Positions 1 to 44,793 of a DNA stretch of 44,793 nt are shown piece after piece (position 1 is the stretch's first letter; every line of letters begins with the position of its first letter). The position numbers were made by a program, and so were the translations under genes. This DNA comes from a virus. The notes beneath the pieces are model-generated. The model did not search any database. It was given only the letters and a program-made list of their open reading frames with translations, and was not told where the DNA came from. The stretch is from the IMG/VR virus record IMGVR_UViG_3300037845_000028, positions 1-44,793 of that record; one strand, written 5' to 3'.

Positions 1-127
1 TCCTAAAGAATGAGGGCGGTTTTGTTGATAACCCTCATGATTCAGGCGGCCCGACCAATATGGGTATATCCCTCAAGTTTTATCGAACTGTTATTGATCC
101 AACGGCAACCGCAGAAGACATCAAAGC
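1..127. repeat. 127-bp exact direct terminal repeat, left copy
   Basis: These bases are identical to 44667-44793. Both copies lie inside the same endolysin reading frame, which is complete only when the ends are joined. A 127-base overlap equals a common largest assembly k-mer, so this is best read as the closure of a circular (circularly permuted or excised) molecule and not as a biological terminal repeat. Confidence 0.95.
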
Positions 128-26124: not shown

Positions 26125-26417
26125 ACCCAGAACAACACGAAACCGTAGATAATATACTAAGACGATTATGCTATTCGATGGAGAAGCTGCAACACTCCAT
26201 CGATATTATTTGCCTCAAGATAGAAAAGCAGGAGCATGACTTACAGCATAAGATGCTTAAATATAAACTCATTAACATATTTTTACTGATTTATCCTCTC
26301 GCAATTGTGTTTTTACTTATGTGGGCTGATATAGATCATAAGAGGATTACAGATAGCTACACTTATACTCAAGCGATACTGGCAGAGCTTTTGAAAGCGG
26401 TTAAGTATTTAGGTTAA
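26121..26417 (+). CDS. Small membrane-anchored coiled-coil protein
   Basis: A 98-residue protein, the last gene of the long late operon. Residues ~8-50 form an amphipathic helix (LRRLCYSMEKLQHSIDIICLKIEKQEHDLQHKML), followed by a membrane helix (LINIFLLIYPLAIVFLLMW) at about 51-70. It may be a lysis accessory (antiholin/i-spanin-like), or a tail-end protein. Nothing in the sequence decides between these; the coiled coil plus one membrane helix is the visible fact. Confidence 0.6.
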   Translation: MNPEQHETVDNILRRLCYSMEKLQHSIDIICLKIEKQEHDLQHKMLKYKLINIFLLIYPLAIVFLLMWADIDHKRITDSYTYTQAILAELLKAVKYLG

Positions 26418-26716
26418 CGTTTATTGCGGAGACGTCGAAGCGCCTTTGACTCAACCCGCTCATGAAAAGCTACTTCTTCTCTTAGGCTTTTCGGAACCTT
26501 ATTGCTCACGCTTATTTTTCCTGACTTAGTATTGTGACCAATCATCTTACCAGCAGGGACTTTTTGATCTAACTTTTTAAGTCTTAAATAACCTTTGGGA
26601 TATTTTGCTTTCTCTTTTTGGTTAGCGATTGTATGTGCCTCATGATAGTTAGGATCATGCTCAGGGTAACCCTTTCTGCTTATATACCCATTAACCACCT
26701 TATAAGTCTTGCGCAT
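26414..26716 (-). CDS. Hypothetical protein with VAFHE motif
   Basis: A 100-residue minus-strand protein. ATG 26716 overlaps the previous stop (TGATG) and has a GAGGT site; an in-frame TTG three bases earlier is less likely. It is very basic, with DPNYHEAHTIANQKEKAKYPKGYLRLKKLDQKVPAGKMIGHNTKSGKI and the terminal EEVAFHERVESKAL. This pattern appears in phage and mobile-element proteins of unknown role; HE-x-x-E resembles a zinc-protease-like helix but is too little to claim activity. It is convergent with the late operon. Confidence 0.6.
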   Translation of the reverse strand: MRKTYKVVNGYISRKGYPEHDPNYHEAHTIANQKEKAKYPKGYLRLKKLDQKVPAGKMIGHNTKSGKISVSNKVPKSLREEVAFHERVESKALRRLRNKR

Positions 26717-26889
26717 CAATAAACCTCACCACAAACAAATCCACCCTCGACCTCATCGCAAAGATAAAGCCGAGACGTAGACGATTTTGGAGTGTAACAA
26801 TGATAATAGCTGCACGCTGATACAAAAATCACGGGCAAAAATAGAATCGCAACGAGGGAGCAACTCTTAAAAAAACCCGTGATTTTCAT
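26716..26889 (-). CDS. Small lipoprotein (57 aa)
   Basis: ATG 26889 encodes a 57-residue product with a signal peptide: MKITGFFKSC start, hydrophobic core LVAILFLPVIFV and lipobox SA-C near residue 26. The mature part has three more cysteines and is short. It is coupled to the following gene by TGATG. A lipoprotein in this size class could be an o-spanin (Rz1-like), but it lies opposite to the late genes and is not proline-rich, so a moron surface protein is equally possible. Confidence 0.6.
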   Translation of the reverse strand: MKITGFFKSCSLVAILFLPVIFVSACSYYHCYTPKSSTSRLYLCDEVEGGFVCGEVY

Positions 26890-26907: not shown

Positions 26908-26937
26908 TTGATGTATTAGAAGCACAATAATGATAAT
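26908..26937 (+). promoter_or_regulatory. Sigma70-like promoter of the GNAT/RimK pair
   Basis: TTGATG (26908-26913), an 18-base spacer and GATAAT (26932-26937) give four of six and five of six consensus bases. It lies 30 bases before the GTG start at 26967, in the divergent gap opposite the lipoprotein gene. An own promoter is typical of moron genes and would let the pair be expressed from the prophage. Confidence 0.5.
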
Positions 26938-26966
26938 ATGAAATTAAAATTTAAGGAAGAAATTTT

Positions 26967-27416
26967 GTGATTCGAGAAGCAAAAATAAATGATCTAGATC
27001 AAATTTTCATGATAGAAAGGATGTCTTTTTTATCCGAAAGATTTAGCAAAGATTGCTTGCGTTATCTGATTAATAAAGCAAAGAGCAAAGTTATTGTTTA
27101 TGAACGACATAAAAATCTATGTGGCTATGCTATTACTCTATTTCATACTAAACGCTGTCATGCTCGATTATACTCAATCGCAGTTAGACCGTCAGATAGA
27201 GGCTATCAGATTGGCTCTGAGCTTTTAAAGAAGTCTGAACAAATCGCTGTGCTATACAAGCATCAAATGCAACTCGAAGTTAGACCGAGCAATATGAGAG
27301 CAATTCGATTCTATAAGGGTCATGGCTACAAGCAAGTAGGTCTTAAAATGAATTATTACCAAGATGGAGAGGGGGCTTATATATTCTCCAAGGATTTAAG
27401 ATGCAAGCAAGTTTAG
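26967..27416 (+). CDS. GNAT-family N-acetyltransferase (RimI-like), partner of a RimK-family ligase
   Basis: A 149-residue GNAT using a GTG start with an AAGGAAG site. The fold is complete: IREAKINDLDQIFMIERMSF, the KVIVYERHKNLCGYAITLF strands, LYSIAVRPSDRGYQIGSELL (motif A) and MQLEVRPSNMRAIRFYKGHGYKQVG. In motif A the usual R-x-x-G-x-G reads RGYQIG: the first glycine is Gln, which may weaken acetyl-CoA binding. Bacterial relatives of this GNAT are often fused to a C39-type peptidase and sit beside RimK-family genes; here the peptidase part is absent. It overlaps the ligase gene by 16 bases. Confidence 0.82.
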   Translation: MIREAKINDLDQIFMIERMSFLSERFSKDCLRYLINKAKSKVIVYERHKNLCGYAITLFHTKRCHARLYSIAVRPSDRGYQIGSELLKKSEQIAVLYKHQMQLEVRPSNMRAIRFYKGHGYKQVGLKMNYYQDGEGAYIFSKDLRCKQV

Positions 27417-28279
27417 CTATTTTGTACGATGAGGGCAGGAGGTTTTTACCTTCTAACCCCGCCGCTATTGAAAATTTTATAGATTCAGCAAAAAGGAACG
27501 GTCTTGATTGCGAAGTAATCCAAGAAGTTGATCTTAATGAACTTCATAGATTTGAAGCATTATTCATTAGAAATACAACATCTAAACTCAATGAGACTTA
27601 TCATTTCGCTGCAATGGCTCATATGCTTGATATACCCTGTATCGATGACATTTATTCAATCGGTTTTTGTACCGACAAAATTAAACAAGCTCATGCTTTT
27701 GAGATCAATAACATACTTACGCCATTGACTTTCTGTATAAGCAGAAACAATTATGAATTTATCGGTCGAATTATTAAATATCCGGTTGTGATAAAAAGAC
27801 CGGATGGATGTTTTTCGCGTGGAGTCTATAAGGCTCGCGATAGAGTTGAATACGAAAAAATGTGCTATGACCTATTCAAGAAGCCAGAGATATACGAGCT
27901 TGTAGTTCAGGAATTTATAAAAACCGAGTTCGACTGGCGTATTTGTAGCTTACATAACAAACCATTATTTGCAGTTAAATATTATATCCCAAAAGGTGAC
28001 TTCAGGATTGTTAAGTATAAAAACGACAATGAGTTTGTAGAAGGGGAGCACGAATGTGTTCCGATGGATCAAGTGCCAGCGCATATCTTGAGAGCAGCCT
28101 ATCAAGCCTCAATATGCGCAGGCAATGGCTTGTATGGCGTGGATATTAAAGAAAAAGACAATGCCGCCTATGTTATCGAAGTTAATGACAATCCAAGTAT
28201 AGACGCTGGCATTGAAGACGAGCTAGAGCAAGAGAAAATCTATGACTCAATAACACGTTGGTTTGTAAATCGATTGTAA
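27401..28279 (+). CDS. RimK-family ATP-grasp ligase with N-terminal RLAN-like region
   Basis: A 292-residue protein. Residues 4-90 (LAILYDEGRRFLPSNPAAIENFIDSAKRNGL) match the N-terminal part of RimK-family ligases seen beside GNAT genes. Then comes the ATP-grasp fold: FCTDKIKQAHAF, VVIKRPDGCFSRGVYKA with K132, VVQEFIKTEFDWRI, and the metal/ATP end LYGVDIK (D248) and VIEVNDNPSIDAGIEDE (E260, N262). The family joins an amino acid (often Glu) to a carboxylate or amine. Length is shorter than the ~480-residue chromosomal type, with the N-terminal part trimmed. It is translationally coupled to the GNAT. The target is unknown. Confidence 0.82.
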   Translation: MQASLAILYDEGRRFLPSNPAAIENFIDSAKRNGLDCEVIQEVDLNELHRFEALFIRNTTSKLNETYHFAAMAHMLDIPCIDDIYSIGFCTDKIKQAHAFEINNILTPLTFCISRNNYEFIGRIIKYPVVIKRPDGCFSRGVYKARDRVEYEKMCYDLFKKPEIYELVVQEFIKTEFDWRICSLHNKPLFAVKYYIPKGDFRIVKYKNDNEFVEGEHECVPMDQVPAHILRAAYQASICAGNGLYGVDIKEKDNAAYVIEVNDNPSIDAGIEDELEQEKIYDSITRWFVNRL

Positions 28280-28522
28280 TTTTTTAATTGTTTGCTCAAG
28301 TAGAATTTTAAACTTTACACGCTCGGCAACAAGCCAGAACATTTCGCTTAAAAGAAACCCAACGCAAAAATAATACCATACGCTTTTTGGGTGTATCTCG
28401 ATCAAAATGATCGCGGCGATAAGTAACAAAAATGAAATTGAAGTAATAATAAAATTGTATTTTATTTTTTCTCTTATAGATCTGATTGTGATTCTTAACA
28501 TATCTATTTGCATTCCATCCAT
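28247..28522 (-). CDS. Small membrane protein with two transmembrane helices
   Basis: A 91-residue minus-strand product from ATG 28522 after an AAGG site (an in-frame TTG at 28528 is an alternative). Two hydrophobic helices lie near residues 25-42 (FIITSISFLLLIAAIILIEI) and 48-65 (VWYYFCVGFLLSEMFWLV), flanked by basic segments. It overlaps the end of the ligase gene by 33 bases. Small two-helix membrane proteins near attP often act in superinfection exclusion, but no family is recognised. Confidence 0.6.
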   Translation of the reverse strand: MDGMQIDMLRITIRSIREKIKYNFIITSISFLLLIAAIILIEIHPKSVWYYFCVGFLLSEMFWLVAERVKFKILLEQTIKKLQSIYKPTCY

Positions 28523-28534
28523 AATCAAAAACCT

Positions 28535-28771
28535 TGTCTAATATGCATCGAAATATCAATAAGTTATAGGATCATTATGATTAAAAGTAAGTCATTTTTA
28601 TTAGACATCATAATAGGTTAACCTTTTGATTTTTATTTATAAATCAGAGAAAACATGCGTGCGTTCGAGTCTCTCCTTTCGCATGGAATTCTATCTAAAA
28701 ACCATAAAAAATCAATAAGTTAATCGGTCTAAATTTTAGACCATGTCTAATTACCTTATGTTATGTCTAAT
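28535..28771 (+). other. attP: tRNA 3'-end core flanked by arm-type repeats
   Basis: A 21-base stretch at 28663-28683 reads like the T-loop through discriminator of a tRNA (GTTCGAGT, CTCTC, CTTTCGC, A). The bases upstream do not complete a T-stem, as expected for an attachment core. ATCAATAAGTTA lies on both sides (28555-28566 and 28711-28722). TGTCTAAT occurs four times (28535-28542, 28744-28751, 28764-28771 forward; 28600-28607 reversed). The integrase gene ends at 28785. Core plus two kinds of flanking repeats is the normal form of attP. No gene lies in 28529-28784. Confidence 0.65.
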
Positions 28772-28784
28772 AAAATAAATATTT

Positions 28785-29774
28785 TTATCGTTTAATCGTG
28801 CTCACATTTCTATATTTTCGATTGTAAACACGTTCTGTCATTCTGATATCTGTATGACCTAGCAAAGCACTAACATCAATTTTATTTTTAGCGTCACTTG
28901 CTGTTTTTGCTCGTATATCATGAAAAGTAAATGACTCTTTTAATTTACCATTCGCGAGTGCCGCCTTCATTATTTTTTGCCACGCTGAATCAAATGCTGC
29001 ACTTGTAATTGGTTTACCTTTTCTATTGCAAAATAAAGTAAAACTAACAATCTTAGATCTTGGAAGCTTCATGATCTCATCAATACATTTTCTAAGTTCA
29101 ATTGACCATTTGATATTGATTTTAATTTTAGTTTTATTTTGATAGATCTTAATGCCGTCATCAGAGATATCAGAAAGCTTTATTTTAATAATATCGCCTC
29201 GTCTTTGTCCTGTAATGTAAGCGAAATCCATTAATAACTGATAAGTAAGATCCGCGACTTTTCTAACCTCAAAGTATTCCCAATCTTCAATATAGCGGTC
29301 TCTCGGGCGCTCTGTAAGGCGTTTGACATTGCGGCACGGATTGTCACGTACAATTCCCCAACGAATCGCCATGCTGAATACGTGGCTTAATAGGCTTTTC
29401 TCTCTATTTGCTGATACTGGCGCAAGTTTTCCTCTCATATCTAAATAACGGTATACATCTACCGGAGTGATATCCTCCGGTAACATATCCCCGAAAACCT
29501 CGCGGATTTCTTTCATCTGATAAACATTTTTTTTATAGCTACCAGGTGACTTAAGGGGAGCAACCTCTAACATATACCGATGAAATAAATTGTGCATTGT
29601 AGTTGTTTTTCGAATTGGGCTGGTTATTTCTGCCCATTTGGCCATTGCTTTTGCATAGTCGCTAACTGATGCAAGTCGTATCCATTTATTATTAAGATTT
29701 ACATAATAATAAGCATTATGTTTTATATAAACCCGAGGCGGCAAATGTTTATCGTTTTTTCTAATCTTAGGCAT
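28785..29774 (-). CDS. int: Tyrosine integrase
   Basis: A 329-residue site-specific recombinase that should integrate and excise the phage at the tRNA-like attP beside it. The N-terminal arm-binding/SAM-like region is at about 50-150. The catalytic domain has R191 (TGQRRGD), K215 in a beta hairpin, H285 and R288 (FHDIRAK), H307 (LLGHTDI) and Y317 (VYNRKY). All expected catalytic residues are present, so it should be active. Its start overlaps the DUF4224 gene by eight bases. Confidence 0.93.
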   Translation of the reverse strand: MPKIRKNDKHLPPRVYIKHNAYYYVNLNNKWIRLASVSDYAKAMAKWAEITSPIRKTTTMHNLFHRYMLEVAPLKSPGSYKKNVYQMKEIREVFGDMLPEDITPVDVYRYLDMRGKLAPVSANREKSLLSHVFSMAIRWGIVRDNPCRNVKRLTERPRDRYIEDWEYFEVRKVADLTYQLLMDFAYITGQRRGDIIKIKLSDISDDGIKIYQNKTKIKINIKWSIELRKCIDEIMKLPRSKIVSFTLFCNRKGKPITSAAFDSAWQKIMKAALANGKLKESFTFHDIRAKTASDAKNKIDVSALLGHTDIRMTERVYNRKYRNVSTIKR

Positions 29775-29997
29775 TATGTATAGCTTGCTCTAGTTTTGTA
29801 AAATTTGGTTCTACTCGTCGTTTGGTTATTGACTTAACCTGCGCACCTAATAGCGCCTCAAGCTGGCTCAATAATAATCTCGGTCTACCGTCGGCGCCAA
29901 TCATAAATTTAAATCCATTGGATCGCAGCCATTTTATTTGTAGAGCTGTCTTTTTATAACCTGTCAGCTCTTGTATATCTTCTTGACTTAGAAACAT
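29767..29997 (-). CDS. DUF4224 protein, likely integrase partner/excisionase-like
   Basis: A 76-residue protein of the DUF4224 type: FLSQEDIQELTGYKKTALQIKWLRSNGFKFMIGADGRPRLLLSQLEALLG. This helix-turn-helix-like family is nearly always found next to phage integrases, and probably helps choose recombination direction. Starts after AAGGAT and overlaps the integrase start. It is preceded by a structured non-coding stretch. Confidence 0.82.
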   Translation of the reverse strand: MFLSQEDIQELTGYKKTALQIKWLRSNGFKFMIGADGRPRLLLSQLEALLGAQVKSITKRRVEPNFTKLEQAIHNA

Positions 29998-44635: not shown

Positions 44636-44793
44636 ATGAGCAATTTTGATACAGCGATGCTTACAGTCCTAAAGAATGAGGGCGGTTTTGTTGATAACCC
44701 TCATGATTCAGGCGGCCCGACCAATATGGGTATATCCCTCAAGTTTTATCGAACTGTTATTGATCCAACGGCAACCGCAGAAGACATCAAAGC
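44636..44793 (+). CDS. Endolysin (GH108), 5' part running into the contig end
   Basis: ATG 44636 follows CAGGGAAA and begins MSNFDTAMLTVLKNEGGF, with the catalytic Glu (E15) and the D-S-GG-PTN-MG loop of GH108 muramidases. It runs off the end at residue 53 and continues at position 128 (bases 1-127 repeat the last 127). The start and the promoter region confirm it as the first gene of the lysis group. Confidence 0.9.
   Translation, partial: MSNFDTAMLTVLKNEGGFVDNPHDSGGPTNMGISLKFYRTVIDPTATAEDIK
44667..44793. repeat. 127-bp exact direct terminal repeat, right copy
   Basis: Identical to 1-127; see that entry. It joins the two halves of the endolysin gene and shows that the phage genome is circular (or circularly permuted) in the sequenced material. 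Confidence 0.95.

What the first reader, a model, noticed from the sequence alone, without database searches (positions are those of the whole stretch)
26908..28279. Phage-borne GNAT plus RimK-type ligase cassette with its own promoter
Seen: a GTG-started GNAT (149 aa) overlaps a RimK-family ATP-grasp ligase (292 aa) by 16 bases, behind TTGATG-18-GATAAT. Known: chromosomal versions of this pair often have the GNAT fused to a C39 peptidase and are predicted peptide/protein-modification loci. Here the peptidase is gone, the ligase N-terminus is trimmed and motif A has Gln for Gly. Inference: a phage-adapted moron that adds amino acids or acyl groups to a host protein, peptide or surface molecule in the lysogen. 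I know of no described phage function.
Basis: partly seen in the sequence, partly recalled or inferred. Interest (0 to 1): 0.75.

Follow-up and report, generated by a model that had tools for sequence, protein, structure and literature searches.

The report
Two-enzyme phage peptide-modification cassette
A temperate phage, and at least three otherwise unrelated phages, carry a pair of intact overlapping genes for an acetyl-adding enzyme and an amino-acid-joining enzyme; the pair is a stripped-down version of a poorly understood bacterial system and probably changes a peptide or protein of the infected host.

Summary
In detail: GNAT (26967-27416) and RimK-like ATP-grasp ligase (27401-28279) are intact and overlap by 16 bases. 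The putative promoter is not better than chance, but both neighbouring genes point the other way, so the pair needs its own transcription. The window is a circularly closed temperate myovirus. The pair lies between the tail/lysis end and a 21-base attP core that equals the 3' end of tRNA-Leu(UAG), next to the integrase: a moron position. Three other IMG/VR phage contigs carry the same overlapping pair. Phage ligases form one clade (100/99); phage GNATs do too once three long-branch rows are left out (97/96). The pair is absent from 50,697 deposited phages. Chromosomal relatives are GNAT(-C39 peptidase) + RLAN-RimK operons; an alternative form pairs RLAN-RimK with GCS2 + FGase, never both in 69 loci. 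The phage form lacks RLAN and the hydrolase but keeps the invariant ligase residues. All four phage ligases replace an invariant His-Trp-Gln loop by Asp-Trp/Phe-Lys/Arg. Fold matches are protein N-terminal acetyltransferases (RimI, Ard1) and ArgX/LysX/RimK. Best reading: a two-writer peptide/protein-modification moron without the eraser. Substrate unknown. New variant of a known, uncharacterised kind.

The parts
26967..27416 (+). GNAT acetyltransferase, 149 aa, GTG start; RimI/Ard1-type N-terminal acetyltransferase fold
   Evidence: AF2 pLDDT 95.1; top PDB fold hits are RimI (Coxiella, E. coli) and Ard1/Naa10, TM about 0.79-0.89
27401..28279 (+). RimK-like ATP-grasp ligase, 292 aa, ATP-grasp part only, no RLAN domain; K93, K132, D178, R180, D248, E260, N262, N264, E272 kept
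27401..27416 (+). 16-base gene overlap (likely translational coupling); 14, 20 and 25 bases in the other phages
26953..26959 (+). Shine-Dalgarno-like AAGGAAG of the GNAT
   Evidence: Sequence
27390..27394 (+). Shine-Dalgarno-like AAGGA of the ligase, inside the GNAT gene
   Evidence: Sequence
26908..26937 (+). Promoter-like TTGATG-18-GATAAT (9 of 12), not above chance
28663..28683 (+). attP core GTTCGAGTCTCTCCTTTCGCA = 3' end of tRNA-Leu(UAG)
   Evidence: Exact match in 7 of 398 Pseudomonadota genomes, each at a tRNA-Leu(tag) gene
28785..29774 (-). Tyrosine integrase, on the other side of attP from the pair
29767..29997 (-). Excisionase (DUF4224)
26414..26719 (-). 101-aa unknown phage protein, oppositely oriented neighbour; homologues in all three other pair-carrying phages and in three phages without the pair
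28247..28528 (-). Possible 93-aa membrane protein, convergent with the ligase and overlapping its end
   Evidence: sequence

Best explanation
A catalytically intact two-enzyme 'writer' module, carried as a lysogenic-conversion gene pair (moron) at the attP end of a temperate phage. The ligase activates a carboxylate with ATP (acyl-phosphate) and joins an amino acid to a peptide or protein; the RimI/Ard1-like GNAT acetylates a free alpha-amine of the same or a neighbouring peptide from acetyl-CoA. Relative to the chromosomal operon, the phage has kept both writers and discarded the accessory RLAN domain and the hydrolase (C39-like peptidase), so the mark would not be reversed by a module-encoded enzyme. 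Shown by sequence: the intact pair, its single origin and maintenance in divergent phages, loss of RLAN and C39, invariant active-site residues, and position beside attP. Inferred: coupled action on one substrate, expression in the lysogen, peptide/protein as substrate, and changed specificity through the loop at 200-202.
For: ORFs intact. The same overlapping pair is in L007, L008 and L009, on contigs with phage genes such as terminase, RecT or Sak4-like proteins, endolysin and integrase. Phage ligases are one clade, 100/99; phage GNATs are one clade, 97/96, without three long-branch rows, and the AU test does not reject it with them, although the phages share almost no structural genes. K93, K132, Q170, D178, R180, Y194, D248, K250, E260, N262, N264 and E272 are the same in 4 of 4 phage and 47 of 47 chromosomal ligases. 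GNAT and ligase are fused in one protein in L049, L062 and L079. The fold matches are protein N-terminal acetyltransferases and ArgX/LysX/RimK, ligases that act on carrier-protein or ribosomal-protein carboxylates. attP is adjacent.
Against: No substrate was identified. The alternative chromosomal partners (GCS2, FGase) usually act on small molecules. Ddl is almost as good a fold match as ArgX/RimK. Conserved GNAT Glu104 is Asp in L009, and motif A of L008 has a two-residue deletion. The promoter is not demonstrated. The pair is rare: the window plus three of 2.9 million IMG/VR contigs, with pattern-based scans.
Confidence: 0.45

Rival explanations
1. The pair makes a free small molecule: an N-acetylated dipeptide-like metabolite (functionally like N-acetylglutaminylglutamine amide) that helps the lysogen under stress or acts as an inhibitor.
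For: In the alternative operon type GNAT is replaced by GCS2 + FGase, never both (51 vs 15 loci, 0 with both, Fisher 1.4e-12, not corrected for relatedness); GCS2 and FGase families usually handle small amino-acid derivatives (general knowledge). Ddl-type dipeptide ligases are close fold matches.
Against: The GNAT's best fold and sequence matches are protein N-terminal acetyltransferases; 41 of 51 GNAT loci carry a peptidase-like C39 domain. Neither protein hit a NAGGN synthetase model in NCBIfam.
Confidence: 0.27
2. The target is a surface molecule or cell-wall peptide, giving superinfection exclusion.
For: Moron position at the attP end is typical of lysogenic conversion (general knowledge); ATP-grasp ligases include peptidoglycan ligases.
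Against: No transporter, glycosyltransferase or signal peptide is near; neither protein has surface-modification relatives in the searches.
Confidence: 0.1
3. Counter-defence or host takeover: the pair modifies a host defence or RNA-polymerase protein, as phiKMV Rac is reported to do.
For: Phage GNATs and R2K ATP-grasps are proposed to modify host proteins (PMC7824862, PMC4431377).
Against: No PADLOC match; a temperate phage with the pair at the prophage end rather than among early lytic genes; R2K models are not matched by the window ligase.
Confidence: 0.1
4. Decaying passenger acquired from a bacterial chromosome, without function.
For: Two domains of the chromosomal operon are missing; long branches of the phage clade.
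Against: Four divergent phages keep both frames open, overlapping starts and the invariant ligase residues; single origin of the pair.
Confidence: 0.05

Closest known systems
Chromosomal GNAT-C39 (DUF3335) + RLAN-RimK amidoligase operons (family described by Iyer et al. 2009, cited through PMC10318531 and PMC4431377)
   Same: Same GNAT and same ATP-grasp subfamily (37-43% identity over 99% of the ligase), adjacent genes
   Different: The phage lacks RLAN and the C39-like domain; HWQ loop changed to D[WF][KR]
RimK (ribosomal protein S6 : glutamate ligase)
   Same: ATP-grasp fold, catalytic residues, TM about 0.77
   Different: TIGR00768 56.5 bits against a cut-off of 143.4; PRK10446 19.2 against 331
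ArgX/LysX (carrier-protein amino-acid ligases)
   Same: Best PDB fold match, TM 0.77-0.84
   Different: 17-19% identity; no LysW carrier protein was noticed in the window, but none was searched for
RimI / Ard1 N-terminal acetyltransferases
   Same: Fold, Glu104/Tyr116 and the NYY-x-D hairpin
   Different: 78.4 bits against the RimI cut-off of 86.4; partnered with a ligase
R2K-type phage ATP-grasp ligases and phage GNATs such as Rac (PMC4431377, PMC7824862)
   Same: Phage-encoded amino-acid or acetyl writers proposed to modify host proteins
   Different: Different ATP-grasp family, and not known as a coupled GNAT-ligase pair

Membership tests
GNAT / RLAN-RimK amidoligase system | ATP-grasp domain of the RLAN-RimK subfamily | tested here: met
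   37-43% identity over 99% of length; clade in tree
GNAT / RLAN-RimK amidoligase system | N-terminal RLAN domain (PF14401) | tested here: not met
   Absent in the window and in L007-L009; present in 83 of 84 chromosomal/plasmid loci (the exception, L017, sits at a contig end)
GNAT / RLAN-RimK amidoligase system | Adjacent GNAT of the same subfamily | tested here: met
   26-42% identity to chromosomal GNATs; 51 of 69 chromosomal loci have GNAT
GNAT / RLAN-RimK amidoligase system | C39-like DUF3335 hydrolase | tested here: not met
   Absent; also absent from 10 of 51 chromosomal GNAT loci
RimK S6 modification enzyme | Passes NCBIfam RimK models | tested here: not met
   56.5 vs 143.4 and 19.2 vs 331 bits
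RimI S18 acetyltransferase | Passes NCBIfam RimI model | tested here: not met
   78.4 vs 86.4 bits
N-terminal acetyltransferase fold | GNAT fold closest to RimI/Ard1 with catalytic Glu and Tyr-Tyr hairpin | tested here: met
R2K ATP-grasp clade | Match to Pfam R2K models | tested here: not met
   No R2K match for P0002 at E 0.01
Phage moron / lysogenic conversion cassette | Located at the prophage end beside attP, in opposite orientation to neighbours | tested here: met
Phage moron / lysogenic conversion cassette | Own promoter | tested here: inconclusive
   9/12 site, not above shuffles
Phage moron / lysogenic conversion cassette | Expression from the repressed prophage | not testable with these tools
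   Needs RNA data from a lysogen; host unknown
Known anti-phage defence protein families | Match to PADLOC models | tested here: not met
   No match at E 0.01

The most novel reading that the evidence does not exclude
A RimI-like plus RimK-like pair that writes a dual mark, an acetyl group and added amino acids, on neighbouring host protein ends. The most pointed version is the S18 N-terminus and S6 C-terminus, which lie together on the 30S ribosome. The mark would be locked because no eraser is carried, giving a phage-made translational or regulatory switch in lysogens.
Probability: 0.08. Interest if true: 0.8.

Novelty: new variant of a known kind. Interest (0 to 1): 0.5.

Why it matters
The substrate and product of the widespread chromosomal GNAT/RLAN-RimK system appear to be unknown (no experimental paper was found in the library searched). 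The phage form reduces it to two small enzymes, which makes biochemistry and mass spectrometry tractable, and it would be the first coupled GNAT + RimK-like ligase reported from phages, as far as the searches show.

Tried and rejected
Single-protein scan of IMG/VR gave nothing because its patterns were too strict; alignment scans worked. Legionellales as host was tested with a tail protein: 0 of 143 genomes, and all strong ligase matches listed there are the long form or fragments. Prophage copies of the short ligase in 369 Gammaproteobacteria and 398 Pseudomonadota genomes: none; the two hits above threshold are a 500-aa long form (L161) and L160, which is cut at a contig end next to a GCS2 gene. 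Host identification by the 101-aa neighbour gene: 0 of 398 genomes. RimK or RimI membership rejected by curated cut-offs. Dead GNAT because of the odd motif A: rejected. Promoter as evidence: rejected. Structured RNA upstream of the pair in L007: z-score 0.04, rejected. The Iyer et al. 2009 paper is not held, so it was read only through papers that cite it.

Full report
Observation. Pfam calls the first Acetyltransf_1 (3.8e-13) and the second RimK (9e-9). Each gene has an AAGGA-type ribosome-binding site. The promoter match is 9 of 12 and the region holds 11 such sites against 9.8 +- 2.5 in shuffles, so it is no evidence; however, the genes on both sides are on the other strand, so the pair must be transcribed on its own or by long read-through of opposing genes.

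Context. The window is an IMG/VR virus record. Its last 127 bases repeat its first 127 (the first 100 bases recur from index 44666 to the end; one search shows that 128 do not match), so the genome is circularly closed at 44,666 bases. It encodes terminase, portal, major head protein, tail sheath, baseplate wedge, RecT, integrase and excisionase: a temperate myovirus. Megablast of the window's right half against the deposited phages finds no relative. The pair lies between the tail-fibre/lysis end and the integrase. The 21-mer at 28663-28683 occurs in 7 of 398 Pseudomonadota genomes, every time at a tRNA-Leu(UAG) gene, so attP lies between the pair and the integrase, and the pair would sit at the end of the integrated prophage opposite the integrase. 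This is inference from sequence; no lysogen was found, and the host stays unknown.

Relatives. The ligase matches the C-terminal half of chromosomal 'RimK family' proteins at 37-41% identity over 99% of its length (best plasmid records). Those proteins carry an N-terminal RLAN domain (PF14401). In 84 chromosomal or plasmid loci, RLAN is present in all but one, L017, which sits at a contig end. Among 69 loci with enough flank, 51 have a GNAT beside or fused to the ligase (41 with the C39-like DUF3335 domain), 15 have a GCS2 ligase instead (12 of them with an FGase), 3 have neither, and none has both GNAT and GCS2 (Fisher 1.4e-12, not corrected for shared ancestry). Three proteins fuse GNAT-RLAN-RimK (L049, L062, L079). 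The pattern suggests a ligase, an amine-capping enzyme and a hydrolase as interchangeable roles; this is inference.

Other phages. Alignment-based scans of 2.9 million viral contigs found the same overlapping pair in L007, L008 and L009, on contigs with phage genes, and a lone RLAN-less ligase between terminase and portal in L010/L011. No deposited phage of 50,697 has the pair. The four phage ligases form one clade (100/99). The four GNATs form one clade at 97/96 when three long-branch rows are left out; with all rows they do not, and the AU test does not reject it (p 0.605). The phages share almost no capsid or tail genes with the window. The module was therefore probably acquired once and has been kept while the phages diverged.

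Active sites. Twelve listed ligase residues that are invariant in 47 of 47 chromosomal sequences (ATP, metal and substrate positions of the fold by general knowledge) are identical in the four phage ligases. A His-Trp-Gln stretch at 200-202, invariant in the chromosomal set, is Asp-Phe-Arg in the window and Asp-Trp-Lys in the others. In the profile alignment it falls against the 'HW-ITN' loop of Thermus LysX, a region that takes part in amino-acid recognition in this fold according to general knowledge; altered specificity is therefore inferred. The GNAT keeps Glu104, Tyr116 and the Tyr-Tyr hairpin of RimI/Ard1; the Gln in motif A stands where other intact members have Arg or His. AlphaFold models are confident (pLDDT 95.1 and 94.9). 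The GNAT matches RimI and Ard1/Naa10 structures; the ligase matches ArgX/LysX, RimK and Ddl.

Mechanism. Best explanation: ATP-dependent joining of an amino acid to a carboxylate of a peptide or protein, with acetylation of an alpha-amine by the partner, as a prophage-borne trait without the chromosomal eraser. The strongest rival is a free N-acetyl peptide metabolite. Sequence cannot decide between them.

Literature. Iyer et al. 2009 is not held; papers citing it describe GNAT-fused DUF3335 proteins and operonic ATP-grasp/GNAT links as predicted peptide-modification systems. Phage R2K ATP-grasps and GNATs are predicted host-protein modifiers. No paper on RLAN or on this phage pair was found.

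Verdict. Real, intact, shared by divergent phages, and a new variant of a known but uncharacterised kind.

Noticed in passing
window 1-127 and 44667-44793: Identical 127-base terminal repeat: the record is a circularly closed phage genome of 44,666 bases.
   Followed up: yes
window 26414-26719 (-): 101-aa unknown protein with a conserved AxHExxE stretch, found in six other IMG/VR phage contigs (three with the pair, three without), in no deposited phage and in none of 398 Pseudomonadota genomes sampled.
   Followed up: partly
L009 5841-5904 (+): tRNA-like element (Rfam tRNA 45.7 bits) with D, T and acceptor arms but no anticodon arm, about 715 bases upstream of the phage GNAT.
   Followed up: partly
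L007 7151-7265 (+): Another tRNA-like stretch (acceptor GGTAATC/GATTACC and a T-arm, about 115 nt, not called by ARAGORN) about 235 bases upstream of the GNAT.
   Followed up: no
L010 6085-7020, L011 7974-8909: Lone RLAN-less ligase between terminase and portal genes of a GC-rich phage, without a GNAT.
   Followed up: partly
L012 7719-8879: 83-kb AT-rich phage contig with a ligase that keeps a partial RLAN domain.
   Followed up: no
G037 contigs C11 and C18: A Legionellales genome with four long-form RLAN-RimK ligases, three of them in tandem.
   Followed up: no
window 28247-28528 (-): Possible 93-aa membrane protein convergent with the ligase and overlapping its 3' end.
   Followed up: no
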